This document shows, piece by piece, positions 28,993 to 49,600 of a stretch of DNA of 64,000 nt. Position numbers and translations under genes: made by a program. Location of the stretch: positions 682,001 to 746,000 of the forward strand of contig NZ_CP035807.1 in the NCBI RefSeq assembly GCF_008329945.1, read 5' to 3'. The stretch comes from Thiospirochaeta perfilievii (GTDB taxonomy: Bacteria > Spirochaetota > Spirochaetia > DSM-2461). Position 1 is the first letter of the stretch; each line of letters begins with the position of its first letter. The notes under the pieces are model-generated. The model was not told where the DNA came from. It did no database searches and saw only the letters and a list, made by a program, of their open reading frames with translations.

Positions 28993-29619
28993 TTATATAC
29001 CTTTACAAAGTTTTTTTACAGAAATATATAATTTTTTACACGCTTCACTCTTATTATTTTTAAAATCCTTAAATGTATTTTCATCACAGTTGTCAGTAAT
29101 AACTCTTTTTGAAAAACAAGGAATTTTTAATTTATTACAAACTTCAAAAACTGAGGATGTTTCCCAACTTACTACAGAACAGCCCCTATCTACCAATAGA
29201 TTTCTTTTTTTAGGGTCACTGACACTATCCTCAATAGATGCATTAATATAATCATCAAACTCCAAATTATTAAAAATAGTTAATAAACCTTCTTTCTTAA
29301 TACTATATTTTTTTCCAACTGTCTCATAATTGTAAAACTCCAATGACCTATTTATAGTTACAATATCTAGGGGATGAAGTTTATTATTAAGTGATCCACA
29401 TGTACCTGTATCTATAACAACTAAATCTTTTAAATTTAAGAGGTTTTCATAAAGATTAATCAATGTATTAACTTTTCCAAGACCTGTATAGATTAGTGTT
29501 ACATGGTCTTTTTTAGCAACTCTTGGTAGATCGCCCTTTAATGTCTCTTCTCTTAAACCTAACTCATTTTTTGCTGAATTAAACTCAAAAGGCAAAGCAC
29601 ATGTAATTACTATTTCCAC
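28993..29619 (-). CDS. Nucleoside phosphorylase/MTA-SAH nucleosidase-like protein
   Basis: A 208-residue protein of the PNP/UDP phosphorylase superfamily: an ITCALPFEFNSAK start, TGLGKVNTL (about 45-53), DTGTCGSL (about 69-76), and SWETSSVFEVCNKLKIPCFSKRVITDNCDE near 149-178. In MTA/SAH nucleosidases the matching stretch has M-E-x-A and an R-x-I-S-D aspartate. Here Glu and Asp are kept but their surroundings differ, so substrate is uncertain. It lies 2 nt after an orphan gene. Confidence 0.65.
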   Translation of the reverse strand: MEIVITCALPFEFNSAKNELGLREETLKGDLPRVAKKDHVTLIYTGLGKVNTLINLYENLLNLKDLVVIDTGTCGSLNNKLHPLDIVTINRSLEFYNYETVGKKYSIKKEGLLTIFNNLEFDDYINASIEDSVSDPKKRNLLVDRGCSVVSWETSSVFEVCNKLKIPCFSKRVITDNCDENTFKDFKNNKSEACKKLYISVKKLCKGI

Positions 29620-29621
29620 TT

Positions 29622-30071
29622 TTAATTACTTATCTTTAAACCATACTCTTTTGTAAGTAAGTCTAAATCTTTGTTAAGTTTTTTTAGTTTATCAGTTGTT
29701 AAGTGACCTGTAAGATTTTTTTGAAAATATAAAAACTCTAATTCAAAGTTCAATCCTAACTCACTATTTAGCATTTGTATAAACTCCTCCTCAAAATCAT
29801 CTGTTTCATTAGAATCTAGGAGAATCCTATTATTATTCCCTTTAATAAAAATAGCTACAGAGTTTATTCTATTTATCTCAAGTATTTCATCATTTTGGAA
29901 GTAGTACTTAACATCTCCACAATTCTCAATAAAATCCTGTGAATGCTCAGTTACAACACCATTTTCATCTAATAATCGAGACTCTGTCTTTACAACTTTT
30001 TTAACACTATTATCCAGGATATAGTTATGTACAGCCCGTTTCTTAGTAAAATCTGAAAAATTTACTTTCAT
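29622..30071 (-). CDS. Hypothetical protein
   Basis: A 149-residue acidic soluble protein without signal peptide or recognised domain. It lies 2 nt upstream of the nucleosidase-like gene in the same direction, so the two probably share an mRNA. Nothing in the sequence suggests a function. Confidence 0.55.
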   Translation of the reverse strand: MKVNFSDFTKKRAVHNYILDNSVKKVVKTESRLLDENGVVTEHSQDFIENCGDVKYYFQNDEILEINRINSVAIFIKGNNNRILLDSNETDDFEEEFIQMLNSELGLNFELEFLYFQKNLTGHLTTDKLKKLNKDLDLLTKEYGLKISN

Positions 30072-30189
30072 ACTACCCTCTTAACTTTATTATATATCTC
30101 ACAATTCAAGAATGGAAGTATTTATGAGTATTAAATAGGGGTAAGTGTAATTATTACAGTTGAGTTTTATAATATTAGAATGGATATCA

Positions 30190-30845
30190 ATAAATCTACA
30201 GCCTAGGAACTAAATACAGTGCAATTAGCCTACTCTCCCACTCAAAACATTTCGATCAGAAATTGTTTTGCTTAACTAGGAGATTGATATGGAACTTAAT
30301 ATATTATTTGCATGACTGGATTGAATTGGCATTGTACCATCGAGATGGAACTGCGTTAGTTCATGTTAAACAAAACGTGTTGATTAAAAAAAGAAAATTA
30401 ATAAAAAAAAGTCTAGCGTATGAACCTAATTGCAGTGCAATTAGCCTACTCTCCCACTCAAAACATTTCGATCAGAAATTGTTTTGCTAAACTAGGAGAT
30501 TGATATGGAACTTAATATATTATTTGCATGACTGGATTGAATTGGCATTGTACCATCGAGATGGAACTGCGTTAGTTCATGTTAAACAAAACGTGTTGAT
30601 TAAAAAAAGAAAATTAATAAAAAAAAGTCTAGCGTATGAACCTAATTGCAGTGCAATTAGCCTACTCTCCCACTCAAAACATTTCGATCAGAAATTGTTT
30701 TGCTAAACTAGGAGATTGATATGGAACTTAATATATTATTTGCATGACTGGATTGAATTGGCATTGTACCATCGAGATGGTACTGCGATAGTGGGGAAAT
30801 CCTAATACAGATACATGGTAAATAAAACTATTATAAATAAAAAAA
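30190..30845. repeat. Tandem array of 216-bp repeats bearing 5S rRNA 3'-end copies
   Basis: Anchoring on CCTACTCTCCCACT, copies begin at 30229, 30445 and 30661, exactly 216 bp apart. The first two full units differ at one base. The third drifts after about 30785 and runs into the true 5S gene. A degenerate edge precedes copy 1 (30190-30228). Each unit holds, on the minus strand, the 5S-like AGTGGGAGAGTAGG, a short insert containing a palindrome (AATTGCA-G-TGCAATT), then GCTAGAC followed by a T run like the end of the true 5S. Each also has an imperfect hairpin (CAAAACATTTC / GAAATTGTTTTG) and GTACCATC-GA-GATG. The whole 30072-30845 stretch contains no gene I would call. Confidence 0.9.
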
Positions 30846-30955
30846 GTCTAGCGATCACCTACTCTCCCACTAACGCAGTACCATCGGCGCAACTTGGCTT
30901 AACTTCCGTGTTCGGTATGGGAACGGGTGTGGCCCAAGTGCTATCATCACTAGAC
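30846..30955 (-). rRNA. rrf: 5S ribosomal RNA
   Basis: On the minus strand the gene reads GTCTAGTGATGATAGCAC at the 5' end, contains CCGTTCCCATACCGAACACG and ends in GCTAGAC. The termini pair as helix I. A run of seven T follows the 3' end directly, so helix I plus the T run could serve as the operon terminator. Length is about 110 nt; ends are estimated to within a few bases. Confidence 0.97.
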
Positions 30956-31024
30956 AAAAATTTTAATTAAAAACTCTTAAAAAAAGTGTTTAATTAAAAC
31001 AACTTAAGAAAACTTAAGTTTATT

Positions 31025-31108
31025 TTAAATAACGCTGGAGTTAAGTTATTCTACTTATTTATACTCCGTTATTTCCCGAAGGTAAATAACTAAATAGGGT
31101 ATAAAAAT
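31025..31108 (-). other. 23S-5S spacer: hairpin and 3' half of the 23S processing stem
   Basis: Bases 31025-31076 contain a long hairpin (AAATAACG..GGAGT with ACTCCGTTATTT). Bases 31088-31108 are complementary, within the same transcript, to 34201-34226 on the other side of 23S (12 + 9 pairs around a small bulge). This is the expected RNase III processing stem of the 23S precursor. No tRNA lies in this spacer. Confidence 0.65.
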
Positions 31109-31134
31109 CATATCCAGTTAAGGAAAATAAAAAT

Positions 31135-34104
<2,970 letters not shown>

Positions 34105-34578: not shown

Positions 34579-36119
<1,541 letters not shown>

Positions 36120-46618: not shown

Positions 46619-49600
46619 CTATTCTCCCTCTATTTCTATAATTATTTCTAATGATTTTTCAAAATCAAAATTCTTAATATGTTTTAAAACATCTTTCAAT
46701 TTTTTTTCTAGACTATCGTCTTCCACCTTAATTATCAGATCCTCTAAAAGTTTTACACTTTGAATATTATTACTACTAATATATCCCTTTATAACTTCAA
46801 GTTCATTTTTTAAATTATATGCATCAATCTGAGTTTTCCCAACCTTTTCTTTTATTTTGTACTCCTTATTAACTTCAAAGAAGTTATCTATACTGTTAAA
46901 AAGGGCATTAATGGCCTCTCCAAGGGAGGAAATTAAATTAGAGCAGAGATTATTATCTTCATTGTTGTAGGCATTCTCTATCTTTATGCAAATACTATAG
47001 ATCTCATTTGCACTAATATTACCTGCAATACCTTTTAGTTTATGAATGACTTCGCAACAAGATTCATAGTCACCAATAGAGTAGAAACTATTTATTTCAT
47101 TAAATATTCCAGCATTATTCTCTCTAAACCTGGAAATTATTGATAGATAGGATTTCACATCATTATTAATTCGAGCAATACCCTCATGACAATCTAGGTG
47201 TTTAATATTAGGAATTTCTAAACTACTCTTATCAATTGGGGTTATTTGTAAATTAGATACCCACTTATTGATTTTAACAAACATATTGTCAAAATTTATA
47301 GGCTTTGTAATGTAGTCATTCATTCCACATTTTAAAACCTCATCCTCTACACTCGAAACTGCATTACCAGTTAAAGCAATAATTGGTAACTCTACCTCAC
47401 TGTACAATTCACGTATTATTTTTGTAGCAGAAATTCCATCTAACTCAGGCATCTGCAGGTCCATTAAAATTATATTATATCTCTTCTCTTTTGCCATTTT
47501 AATTGCTTCTAAACCATTACATGCTACATCAATAAAAACTCCATCTTGATTAAGGATTTCAACTATTACTTGTTGATTTATCTCATTATCTTCAACAAGT
47601 AAAATATCCATTCTATTATCAAACTCTAGCCTATTCTTAGTTGATTCAATACTATTTGATTCTGTATTAGGAGGACTATTTATCTCCATAATAGTATAAA
47701 GTGTATCATCTACAGCACTTCTTGTTATAGGTTTTAATAAAATTGAATCAACACCAACCCTTGTATACTCATTAATAATGTCAGGTCTATTAAAATCACA
47801 TATAAGTATAGTCTTAGAACTATGTTTGTCATCCAAATTTTTTATCTTCTTAATTGTATCAAGACCATTTAGTTCTGTTAGTTTTAGATCAACAAAAATA
47901 ATAGAGTATCTTTTAGATTTCTCTTTCTTATTACTATTATATGCTTCAATTGCATCATACCCACTTTTGACACTGTTAACTTTAAAATCATACTCCATTA
48001 GAAGATAGGATAATGTGGTTACTAATTCATCATCACTAGAGGCTAAAAGAATATTAGTATTTTTAAACTCTTTTGGAATATCAAATAAATCAAAAGGTTG
48101 AGTTCCAACAATATTACACCGACAGGTAAAGGAAAAAGTACTACCCTCCTCAGGTTTACTATTTACTGAGATATCCCCATCCATTAATTTTGATAGTTTT
48201 TTTGAGATTGAGAGCCCTAAACCTGTACCACCATACTTTCTAGTTGTAGATGTATCTGCCTGGCTAAAGGATTTAAACATCTTTTTACTCTGCTCTTCTG
48301 TTAACCCAATACCTGTATCAATTATATCAAATTTCAATAAAATATCTGTCTCTAACATATTGTCTAGGCTACATTTGATTATAATCTTCCCCTGTTCTGT
48401 AAATTTAATTGCGTTACTAACTAAATTTGTTAATATTTGACTAATCCGAAGGGGATCACCATTTAGAAATCTAGGTACAAGCTCATCAACTTTTACTTGT
48501 AAATCTAATGATTTTTGACTAGCTTTTTCCTGGAACATATTAAAAATATTATCAACTACTTCATCAAGATTAAAATCAATATTATAGATATCAAGTTTTC
48601 CTGCTTCTATTTTTGAAAAGTCTAAAATATCATTTATAATATCCAATAAATTAGTTGAAGCGATATTAATCTTTTTAATATAATTTTCCTGTTTTTCGTT
48701 TAGATCAGTTTTAGTTAAAAGATGTAGTAGGCCTACAATTGCGTTCATGGGTGTTCTAATCTCATGGGACATATTTGCAATAAAGTCACTCTTAGCCCTT
48801 GTAGCTTCCTCAGCCTTATGTTGGGCTAAAACCCTATCATTTGCTTCGACAGTTAGGGAGATAAAGTTAGATAGAGACTTACCATAGGACTTCTCATCAT
48901 TCTTCCACTCCTTAGTTGTACTGTTTTCATTGCATAAAACACCCCATATATCACCCCTAACCCATATAGGAATATCAAGTAATGATTTAACATCGTTATC
49001 AACTAAGTAGTTATTAATTAACTCAGTAGTTCTCTCATCACTAAAAGCATCGTATACAACCAGACTTTTACACTTTAAAATTGTTTCGAAGTATATAGGA
49101 AAATCAGTAACTTTTAACACTGAACCAACTAATGACTGGCCATTAGTTTCCCCATACTCGCTATAACAGGAGAGTTCAGTTTTATCACTGTTAAATAACC
49201 AAATACTGGATCTTGAAATATTTAAACCAAGAACTGCATATTGAGAAATTTTATCATATGTATTTTCTATGGATTGGTTAACAAGGTCATCATTCTGAGT
49301 AAGTTTTGATAGATATAGACTGTGTTGCTCATATCTAACAGATTTATCCTTTAACTCTTTTTCCCTTATTTTCCGTCTTGTTATATCATCTTTAATAGCA
49401 ACAAAATTACTTATAACTCCTCTATCATCTAATATTGGAGTGATAGTTGTAGCCTCACAATATATAGATCCATCTTTCTTTTTATTATATATCTCACCCT
49501 TCCAAGTTTCACCGGATAAAATAGTATTCCATAACTCTCTATAAAACTGATCACCCATAATACCAGACTGTAGTATTGATGGTTTTTTCCCAATGACATC

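What the first reader, a model, noticed from the sequence alone, without database searches (positions are those of the whole stretch)
30190..30845. 216-bp tandem array built around copies of the 5S rRNA 3' end and terminator
Three copies at exact 216-bp steps lie directly after the 5S. Units 1 and 2 differ at a single base, so duplication is recent. Each unit ends, in rRNA sense, with AGTGGGAGAGTAGG, a 27-nt insert with a palindrome, then GCTAGAC plus T run, i.e. an interrupted 5S 3' end. This is what repeated insertion of a small element at the 5S 3' end, leaving target-like copies, would produce. Alternatively it is slippage amplification of a terminator cassette that strengthens the end of the rRNA operon.
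Basis: partly seen in the sequence, partly recalled or inferred. Interest (0 to 1): 0.68.

Follow-up and report, generated by a model that had tools for sequence, protein, structure and literature searches.

The report
Tail repeats copying 5S gene end
Behind most ribosomal RNA operons of this spirochaete sit short repeated cassettes that each end in a copy of the 5S gene's own tail, the same arrangement as the poorly understood 'tRNA-linked repeats' of E. coli, and here I find such gene-tail repeats behind tRNA genes across about a third of the spirochaete genomes sampled.

Summary
The 216-bp array is real. Window 30210-30857 holds three 216-bp steps directly after a 5S gene (30954-30846, minus strand); units 1 and 2 differ at one base. 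The genome is Thiospirochaeta perfilievii P by exact contig sizes, a closed PacBio assembly. Six of its eight 5S genes carry such units (1-4 each). They come in two sequence families (A, B), every copy is 5S-linked, and a same-flank operon without units exists. Each unit has a T-run, about 50 nt of spacer, an ANTISENSE copy of part of the 5S 3' domain, a conserved stem-loop with compensatory changes, and a SENSE copy of the 5S 3' end. This is the anatomy of E. coli tRNA-linked repeats (TLRs: rttR at tyrV; rrA/rrB/rrF after 5S), checked here on E. coli DNA. The same genome has TLRs after two tRNA-Met genes. A covariance model of those finds relatives in 109 of 297 Spirochaetia genomes. Where a Met or Leu tRNA lies just upstream, the unit nearly always ends in an exact, usually 18-nt copy of that tRNA's own 3' end, and keeps a CsrA-type A(N)GGA loop. 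Best reading: a spirochaete TLR array, a read-through small-RNA cassette reusing the gene's 3'-end signal. Anatomy is shown; expression and function are inferred.

The parts
30846..30954 (-). 5S rRNA gene (host gene of the array); last gene of a 16S-23S-5S operon
   Evidence: Rfam RF00001, 96.1 bits, E 1.3e-19; 23S 31135-34104 and 16S 34580-36119 on the same strand
30210..30857 (-). tandem 5S-linked repeat array, three 216-bp steps
30642..30845 (-). 5S-proximal unit, chimera: B-type left part (about 30845-30793) joined to A-type right part (30792-30642)
   Evidence: A-unit match 712642-712792 at 99%; B-unit match over 712638-712850 at 75%
30426..30641 (-). A-type unit 2
30210..30425 (-). A-type unit 1, outermost; its far end is degenerate
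30776..30795 (-). antisense copy of 5S 3' domain (rRNA sense CCCACTATCGCAGTACCATC), 20 nt, one mismatch to the 5S complement
   Evidence: (inverted repeat I1)
30560..30576 (-). antisense copy of 5S 3' domain (ACTAACGCAGTTCCATC)
   Evidence: (I6)
30344..30360 (-). antisense copy of 5S 3' domain (ACTAACGCAGTTCCATC)
   Evidence: (I5)
30661..30674 (-). sense copy of 5S 3' end, AGTGGGAGAGTAGG
30445..30458 (-). sense copy of 5S 3' end, AGTGGGAGAGTAGG
30229..30242 (-). sense copy of 5S 3' end, AGTGGGAGAGTAGG
30675..30702 (-). stem-loop CAAAACAATTTC-TGATC-GAAATGTTTTG with a conserved bulged A
   Evidence: compensatory changes against B-type and other copies
30459..30486 (-). same stem-loop, unit 2
30243..30270 (-). 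same stem-loop, unit 1
30642..30660 (-). palindrome CTAATTGCACTGCAATTAG, part of the 27-nt segment that replaces TGATC of the 5S end
   Evidence: some units at 1271k and 3370k have the native TGATCGCTAGAC instead
30426..30444 (-). same palindrome, unit 2
30619..30634 (-). end copy (rRNA sense CGCTAGAC) and T-run
   Evidence: sequence
30403..30418 (-). end copy (rRNA sense CGCTAGAC) and T-run
   Evidence: sequence

Best explanation
The array is a spirochaete version of the E. coli tRNA-linked repeats (TLRs): short cassettes behind a stable-RNA gene, each carrying an antisense and then a sense copy of that gene's 3' end. Proposed working: some RNA polymerases run past the T-run behind the 5S and transcribe one or more cassettes. 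The sense copy gives each cassette a 3' end that resembles the 5S 3' end, so the same termination or maturation machinery can act on it, as proposed for RrB of E. coli. The structured core is then released as a small RNA whose amount follows rRNA synthesis. Copy number and the A/B/hybrid types change by recombination between repeated 5S ends within and between the eight rrn operons. Shown: anatomy, 5S-only location, sharing between operons, an empty-site operon, a conserved stem-loop, and the same anatomy at tRNA genes and in relatives. Inferred: read-through, processing, the small RNA and its target. For the tRNA-Met-linked repeats of the same genome a likely target is CsrA; the 5S-linked A/B units lack such motifs and their partner is unknown.
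For: Six of eight 5S genes have units and no full unit lies away from rrn. Sense copies of 14, 17, 26 or 29 nt. An antisense copy at tail position 50-51 in all six occupied operons, 0 of 200 shuffles. The unit hairpin pairs in 96.4% of cells with 5 of 11 pairs changed on both sides; every slid control collapses. E. coli tyrV-rttR, read here from MG1655: 19-nt sense copies at tail 159, 337 and 515 and a 10-nt antisense at 59; the rrB-type locus has an 18-nt 5S-end repeat. RrB is made by read-through between T1 and T2, and RNase E is proposed to use the repeat (PMC8144298). T. perfilievii has tRNA-Met-linked units of the same plan. Family members have other 5S-linked units of the same plan.
Against: No expression data. 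No terminator-like stem in the array, and the A-type unit does not fold into a closed domain using its sense copy. A/B show no match to the tRNA-linked model R1 or to Rfam families. In A units the antisense pairs with the real 5S, hardly with the unit's own sense copy. Same-genus genomes have no match, only decayed remnants in one, so any function is not conserved at species level.
Confidence: 0.6

Rival explanations
1. The units are non-autonomous mobile elements that enter at the 3' end of stable-RNA genes, leaving a displaced 3' fragment of the gene at their far end, as integrative elements do at tRNA and ssrA genes; tandem arrays are repeated integrations.
For: Empty (422k) and filled (3370k) operons share the same downstream flank with the 5S end as the direct repeat. 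In tRNA-linked units the copy nearly always begins at the same T-loop position and ends at the gene end. Dehalococcoides ssrA islands leave 20-bp ssrA-end repeats, insert in the T-loop and lie in tandem (PMC3146451).
Against: No full copy lies outside rrn or tRNA-Met loci in T. perfilievii and about 200 bp cannot encode a recombinase. Integration does not explain an antisense copy inside the element that follows the host gene's sequence. Loss by recombination between direct repeats explains the empty site equally well.
Confidence: 0.2
2. The array is mainly a by-product of concerted evolution: a once-formed tail unit is copied, chimerised and amplified by recombination between rrn operons through the shared 5S end, without function.
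For: Seven of the eight 5S genes score identically and the eighth nearly so. B/A chimera at 712k. Variable copy number, 194- and 216-bp versions and decayed copies. Only remnants in one same-genus genome.
Against: The hairpin keeps its loop and bulge with compensatory changes, and the antisense position is nearly constant in both families and at E. coli tyrV. Tandem amplification alone does not make the antisense copy.
Confidence: 0.25
3. The array is a reinforced operon end: extra copies of the 5S 3' end plus T-run act as serial terminators.
For: 5S helix I folds next to the first T-run; T-runs follow GCTAGAC in inner units. Some relatives can pair antisense and sense at the unit base before a T-run.
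Against: No terminator-like stem in 29600-31150, where the shuffle mean is 0.7; outermost units at 712k and 2990k lack GCTAGAC/T-run.
Confidence: 0.12
4. The array is an assembly artefact.
For: Near-identical tandem units after a multi-copy operon are a classic collapse or expansion site.
Against: Contig sizes equal the closed PacBio assembly CP035807/CP035808 (about 10-kb subreads, 176x; PMC7380536), and different copy numbers with distinct flanks occur at six operons.
Confidence: 0.03

Closest known systems
E. coli tRNA-linked repeats at tyrT-tyrV (rttR, 178-bp units)
   Same: Tandem units directly after a stable-RNA gene; 19-nt sense copy of the gene's 3' end at tail 159/337/515 and a 10-nt antisense copy at tail 59; similar unit size and number
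   Different: Host gene is tRNA-Tyr; core sequence unrelated; copies include the encoded CCA; Rfam search of the window gave no match besides rRNA
E. coli rrA/rrB/rrF, TLRs behind the 5S of rrnA, rrnB, rrnD
   Same: Located behind 5S; about 18-nt repeat of the 5S end about 150 nt downstream; present in several rrn operons and absent from others
   Different: Single copy between two strong terminators; no antisense copy of 8 nt or more; has GGA loops that bind CsrA, which A/B units lack
Integrative elements at tRNA/ssrA 3' ends (e.g. Dehalococcoides ssrA islands)
   Same: Displaced 3'-end fragments of the host gene, crossover in the T-loop, tandem arrays (PMC3146451)
   Different: Large islands with integrase genes; no antisense copy mentioned in the passages read
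CsrB/CsrC-type CsrA-binding RNAs
   Same: The tRNA-linked relatives carry GGA, mostly A(N)GGA, in a hairpin loop in 38 of 40 units, and csrA is present
   Different: Does not apply to the 5S-linked A/B units; no binding test

Membership tests
tRNA-linked repeats (TLR) | Lies directly downstream of a tRNA or 5S gene | tested here: met
   All AGTGGGAGAGTAGG sites and all full unit matches in the genome lie at 5S genes
tRNA-linked repeats (TLR) | 3' end of the unit identical to 18-19 bp of the 3' end of the gene upstream | tested here: inconclusive
   Copies of 14, 17, 26 and 29 nt; in units with the 27-nt segment the copy is interrupted. tRNA-Met-linked units of the same genome have exact copies of at least 18 nt
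tRNA-linked repeats (TLR) | One to five units per locus, several loci per genome | tested here: met
   Six 5S loci with 1-4 units and two tRNA-Met loci with 3 and 1 units
tRNA-linked repeats (TLR) | Core sequence similar to E. coli TLRs | tested here: not met
   Rfam scan of the window found only rRNA; the tRNA-linked model R1 finds neither the A/B units nor E. coli rrB. Hence filed as the same kind of arrangement, not as a homologue
tRNA-linked repeats (TLR) | Transcribed by read-through and processed | not testable with these tools
   Needs RNA data
Mobile element / MITE | Copies at unrelated sites | tested here: not met
   Genome searches with A and B units find rrn loci only; one stem-loop match lies in the leader of the 1278k operon
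Mobile element / MITE | Empty site with a direct-repeat signature | tested here: met
   422k vs 3370k operons; direction (gain or loss) is not resolved
Intrinsic terminator array | G+C-rich stem followed by a T-run in each unit | tested here: not met
   0 sites in 29600-31150
CsrA-binding small RNA | A(N)GGA in hairpin loops | tested here: not met
   The unit hairpin has a TGATC loop; the motif is met only for the tRNA-linked relatives

The most novel reading that the evidence does not exclude
Gene-tail repeats are a widespread class of RNA cassettes in spirochaetes (and occur behind 5S in at least one Acidobacteria and one Bacteroidaceae genome) that tie a small RNA, often with CsrA-type loops, to transcription of tRNA and rRNA genes. 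Each cassette carries sense and antisense copies of its own host gene's 3' end, so that stable-RNA synthesis is reported to global regulators.
Probability: 0.35. Interest if true: 0.82.

Novelty: new variant of a known kind. Interest (0 to 1): 0.64.

Why it matters
TLRs have been known in E. coli since 1978 and have no settled function (PMC8144298). Finding the same anatomy in another phylum, behind 5S, tRNA-Met and tRNA-Leu genes, with a constant antisense/sense arrangement that follows the host gene (0 of 10000 permutations) and with covarying A(N)GGA hairpins, turns an E. coli curiosity into a comparative system. One can ask which part is conserved, whether the RNA binds CsrA, and how a cassette comes to carry its host gene's own end. 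The T. perfilievii genome offers eight operons as a natural series: no unit, one unit, two families, hybrids.

Tried and rejected
Coding: 216 bp is a multiple of three and gives 75- and 68-aa ORFs on the opposite strand, but the 194-bp version at the 1271k operon breaks the frame. Known RNA family: Rfam gathering and E-value scans of window and units gave only rRNA/tRNA plus a sub-threshold sX6 hit outside the units. Tandem full 5S genes: most hits of the two-copy pattern scan (Marinifilum, Sphingobacterium, Clostridium and others) are ordinary duplicated 5S genes; only L103 (Acidobacteria) and L096 (Bacteroidaceae) are 5S tail units. Dispersed hairpin: pattern hits with 0-1 mismatches are all rrn-linked; at 2 mismatches they look like noise. 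CsrA motif in the 5S-linked A/B hairpin: absent. Minus-strand loci of relatives were read in the wrong orientation; this was redone.

Full report
Identity and reliability. The window is G000:C1:682001-746000 of a genome with contigs adding to 3,700,583 bases, C1 being 3,667,739. These sizes equal the closed PacBio genome of Thiospirochaeta perfilievii P (3,667,739 + 32,844; CP035807/8; about 10-kb subreads, 176x; PMC7380536). G005 (4,012,482 bases) equals Oceanispirochaeta crateria K2 from the same paper. The identification rests on these exact sizes. An array of 0.65 kb is well within read length.

The array. 5S is at 30954-30846 (minus), the end of a 16S-23S-5S operon. Directly after it come three 216-bp steps. 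Units 1 and 2 differ at one base in a suitable register. The unit next to the 5S is a chimera of two families: its right part is A (99% over 151 nt) and its left part is B.

Genome-wide. There are eight 5S genes. Units follow six of them: 712k (3), 1874k (2), 1271k (3 A plus 1 decayed B), 1278k (B plus A, plus remnants), 2990k (1 A), 3370k (2 B). The 422k and 3375k operons have none. All 22 AGTGGGAGAGTAGG sites, one with a mismatch, are in a 5S or in a unit. 422k has the same downstream flank as 3370k but no unit, so it is the empty counterpart; gain or loss cannot be told. Unit ends are either the native 5S end TGATCGCTAGAC (194-bp spacing at 1271k) or the version in which a 27-nt palindromic segment replaces TGATC (216 bp).

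Anatomy. In rRNA sense: T-run; AT-rich spacer; antisense copy of part of the 5S 3' domain (match scores 12 to 17, at tail position 50-51 in all six operons, none of 200 shuffles; the two empty operons show nothing); core; sense copy of the 5S end of 14-29 nt. The core contains a stem-loop, CAAAACAATTTC-TGATC-GAAATGTTTTG in A and TCAAACATTCTC-TGATC-GAGAAGTTTGA in B. Over five distinct copies 96.4% of cells pair, 5 of 11 pairs change on both sides, and sliding the partner collapses the score. The sample is small. The stem-loop is rrn-restricted; one copy lies in the leader of the 1278k operon, in the other orientation.

Relatives. The A unit has no DNA match in 40 relatives. Same-genus G002 has decayed remnants (GTGGGATCGTAGG, GTGGGATAGTAG) behind two 5S genes. 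More distant members of the family have 5S-linked units of unrelated sequence but the same plan: antisense GCGACGACC about 50-70 nt after the gene, structured core, sense copy ending GTCGCC(A/G)G, T-run or terminator (G004, G008, G009, G011, G013, G014, and two tandem units behind one of four 5S genes in O. crateria; individually of modest significance). Outside the phylum, an Acidobacteria contig (L103) and a Bacteroidaceae contig (L096) show 5S tail units.

The known kind. E. [quoted passage not shown] rrA, rrB and rrF lie between T1 and T2 behind 5S and are read-through small RNAs that bind Hfq and CsrA in vitro (PMC8144298). Read directly from MG1655, the tyrV tail has 19-nt sense copies at 159, 337 and 515 and a 10-nt antisense copy at 59; the rrB-type locus has the 18-nt repeat at about 150 but no antisense of 8 nt or more. 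The T. perfilievii array therefore has TLR anatomy with unrelated core sequence, so I file it as a variant of the kind, not as a homologue.

tRNA-linked units in the same genome. Testing all 59 tRNA hits for downstream copies of their own 3' end gave two positive loci, both tRNA-Met(CAU): three tandem 194-bp units at 2770k and one at 2786k. Aligned with related units they show a consensus structure with 10 of 19 pairs changed on both sides. A covariance model finds matches in 109 of 297 Spirochaetia genomes and 55 of 112 genera, often in tandem (E-values rough). Of the 30 loci held, 25 have a tRNA (Met, Leu or Pro) upstream on the same strand, and most units end in an exact copy, usually 18 nt from the T-loop to the gene end, of that tRNA; the Pro locus is a poor fit and five loci show no RNA gene in the DNA held. 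The antisense copy fits its own tRNA better than other tRNAs (score 301; 0 of 10000 permutations; related sequences inflate this somewhat) and often extends 2-5 nt past the sense copy. On 40 units 94.2% of cells pair, against 27-39% for slid versions (alignment fitted to the model). The helix-2 loop holds GGA in 38 of 40, mostly A(N)GGA, the CsrA signature; csrA is present in T. perfilievii. R1 does not find the 5S-linked A/B units, whose hairpin lacks GGA.

Mechanism. I favour read-through transcription with 3'-end mimicry (0.6 for the whole statement; about 0.85 for the TLR anatomy alone). Copy number and A/B mixing are best explained by recombination between repeated 5S ends across operons. 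Against: no terminator-like stem, no closed fold for A, no RNA data. Integration at the gene end (as for ssrA islands, PMC3146451) remains a serious rival for the origin; it does not explain host-tracking antisense copies. How a cassette acquires an antisense copy of its host gene is unexplained in all models considered. In the paper library held here I found TLRs named in two papers only, both about or citing E. coli work; subscription journals are mostly missing from it.

Noticed in passing
L209 (C1:2770131-2770785) and L210 (C1:2786648-2786912), T. perfilievii: Two tRNA-Met genes are followed by 3 and 1 gene-tail repeats with antisense and sense copies of the tRNA 3' end and CAGGA hairpins; model matches occur in 109 of 297 Spirochaetia genomes, behind Met, Leu and other tRNAs.
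   Followed up: yes
L297 (E. coli MG1655 tyrV tail): E. coli TLRs at tyrV also carry an antisense copy of the tRNA 3' end (GGGGAAGGAT, tail position 59), a feature not mentioned in the passages of PMC8144298 that I read.
   Followed up: partly
L103 and L096: 5S tail units also occur in an Acidobacteria MAG (three copies of the 5S end, 196 and 187 bp apart) and a Bacteroidaceae MAG.
   Followed up: partly
C1:1284217-1284244 (L026 14218-14245): The unit stem-loop with TGATC loop also sits, in reverse orientation, in the leader of the 1278k rrn operon; a degenerate form seems to be in the 422k leader.
   Followed up: partly
window 30831-30843 and family 5S/tRNA-Met tails: The T-run behind 5S and tRNA-Met genes is often followed by ATTTATAA across the family; TTATAA is an m6A motif in both T. 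perfilievii and O. crateria (PMC7380536).
   Followed up: no
C1:1271-1284k and 3365-3377k: Two pairs of rrn operons appear to lie head to tail, so two of the arrays separate neighbouring operons.
   Followed up: no
window 30263-30490 and 30500-30706, + strand: Opposite-strand ORFs repeat because 216 is a multiple of three; the 194-bp version elsewhere breaks the frame.
   Followed up: yes
window 49197-49251: A tandem repeat with a 28-bp unit, two copies, 77% match.
   Followed up: no
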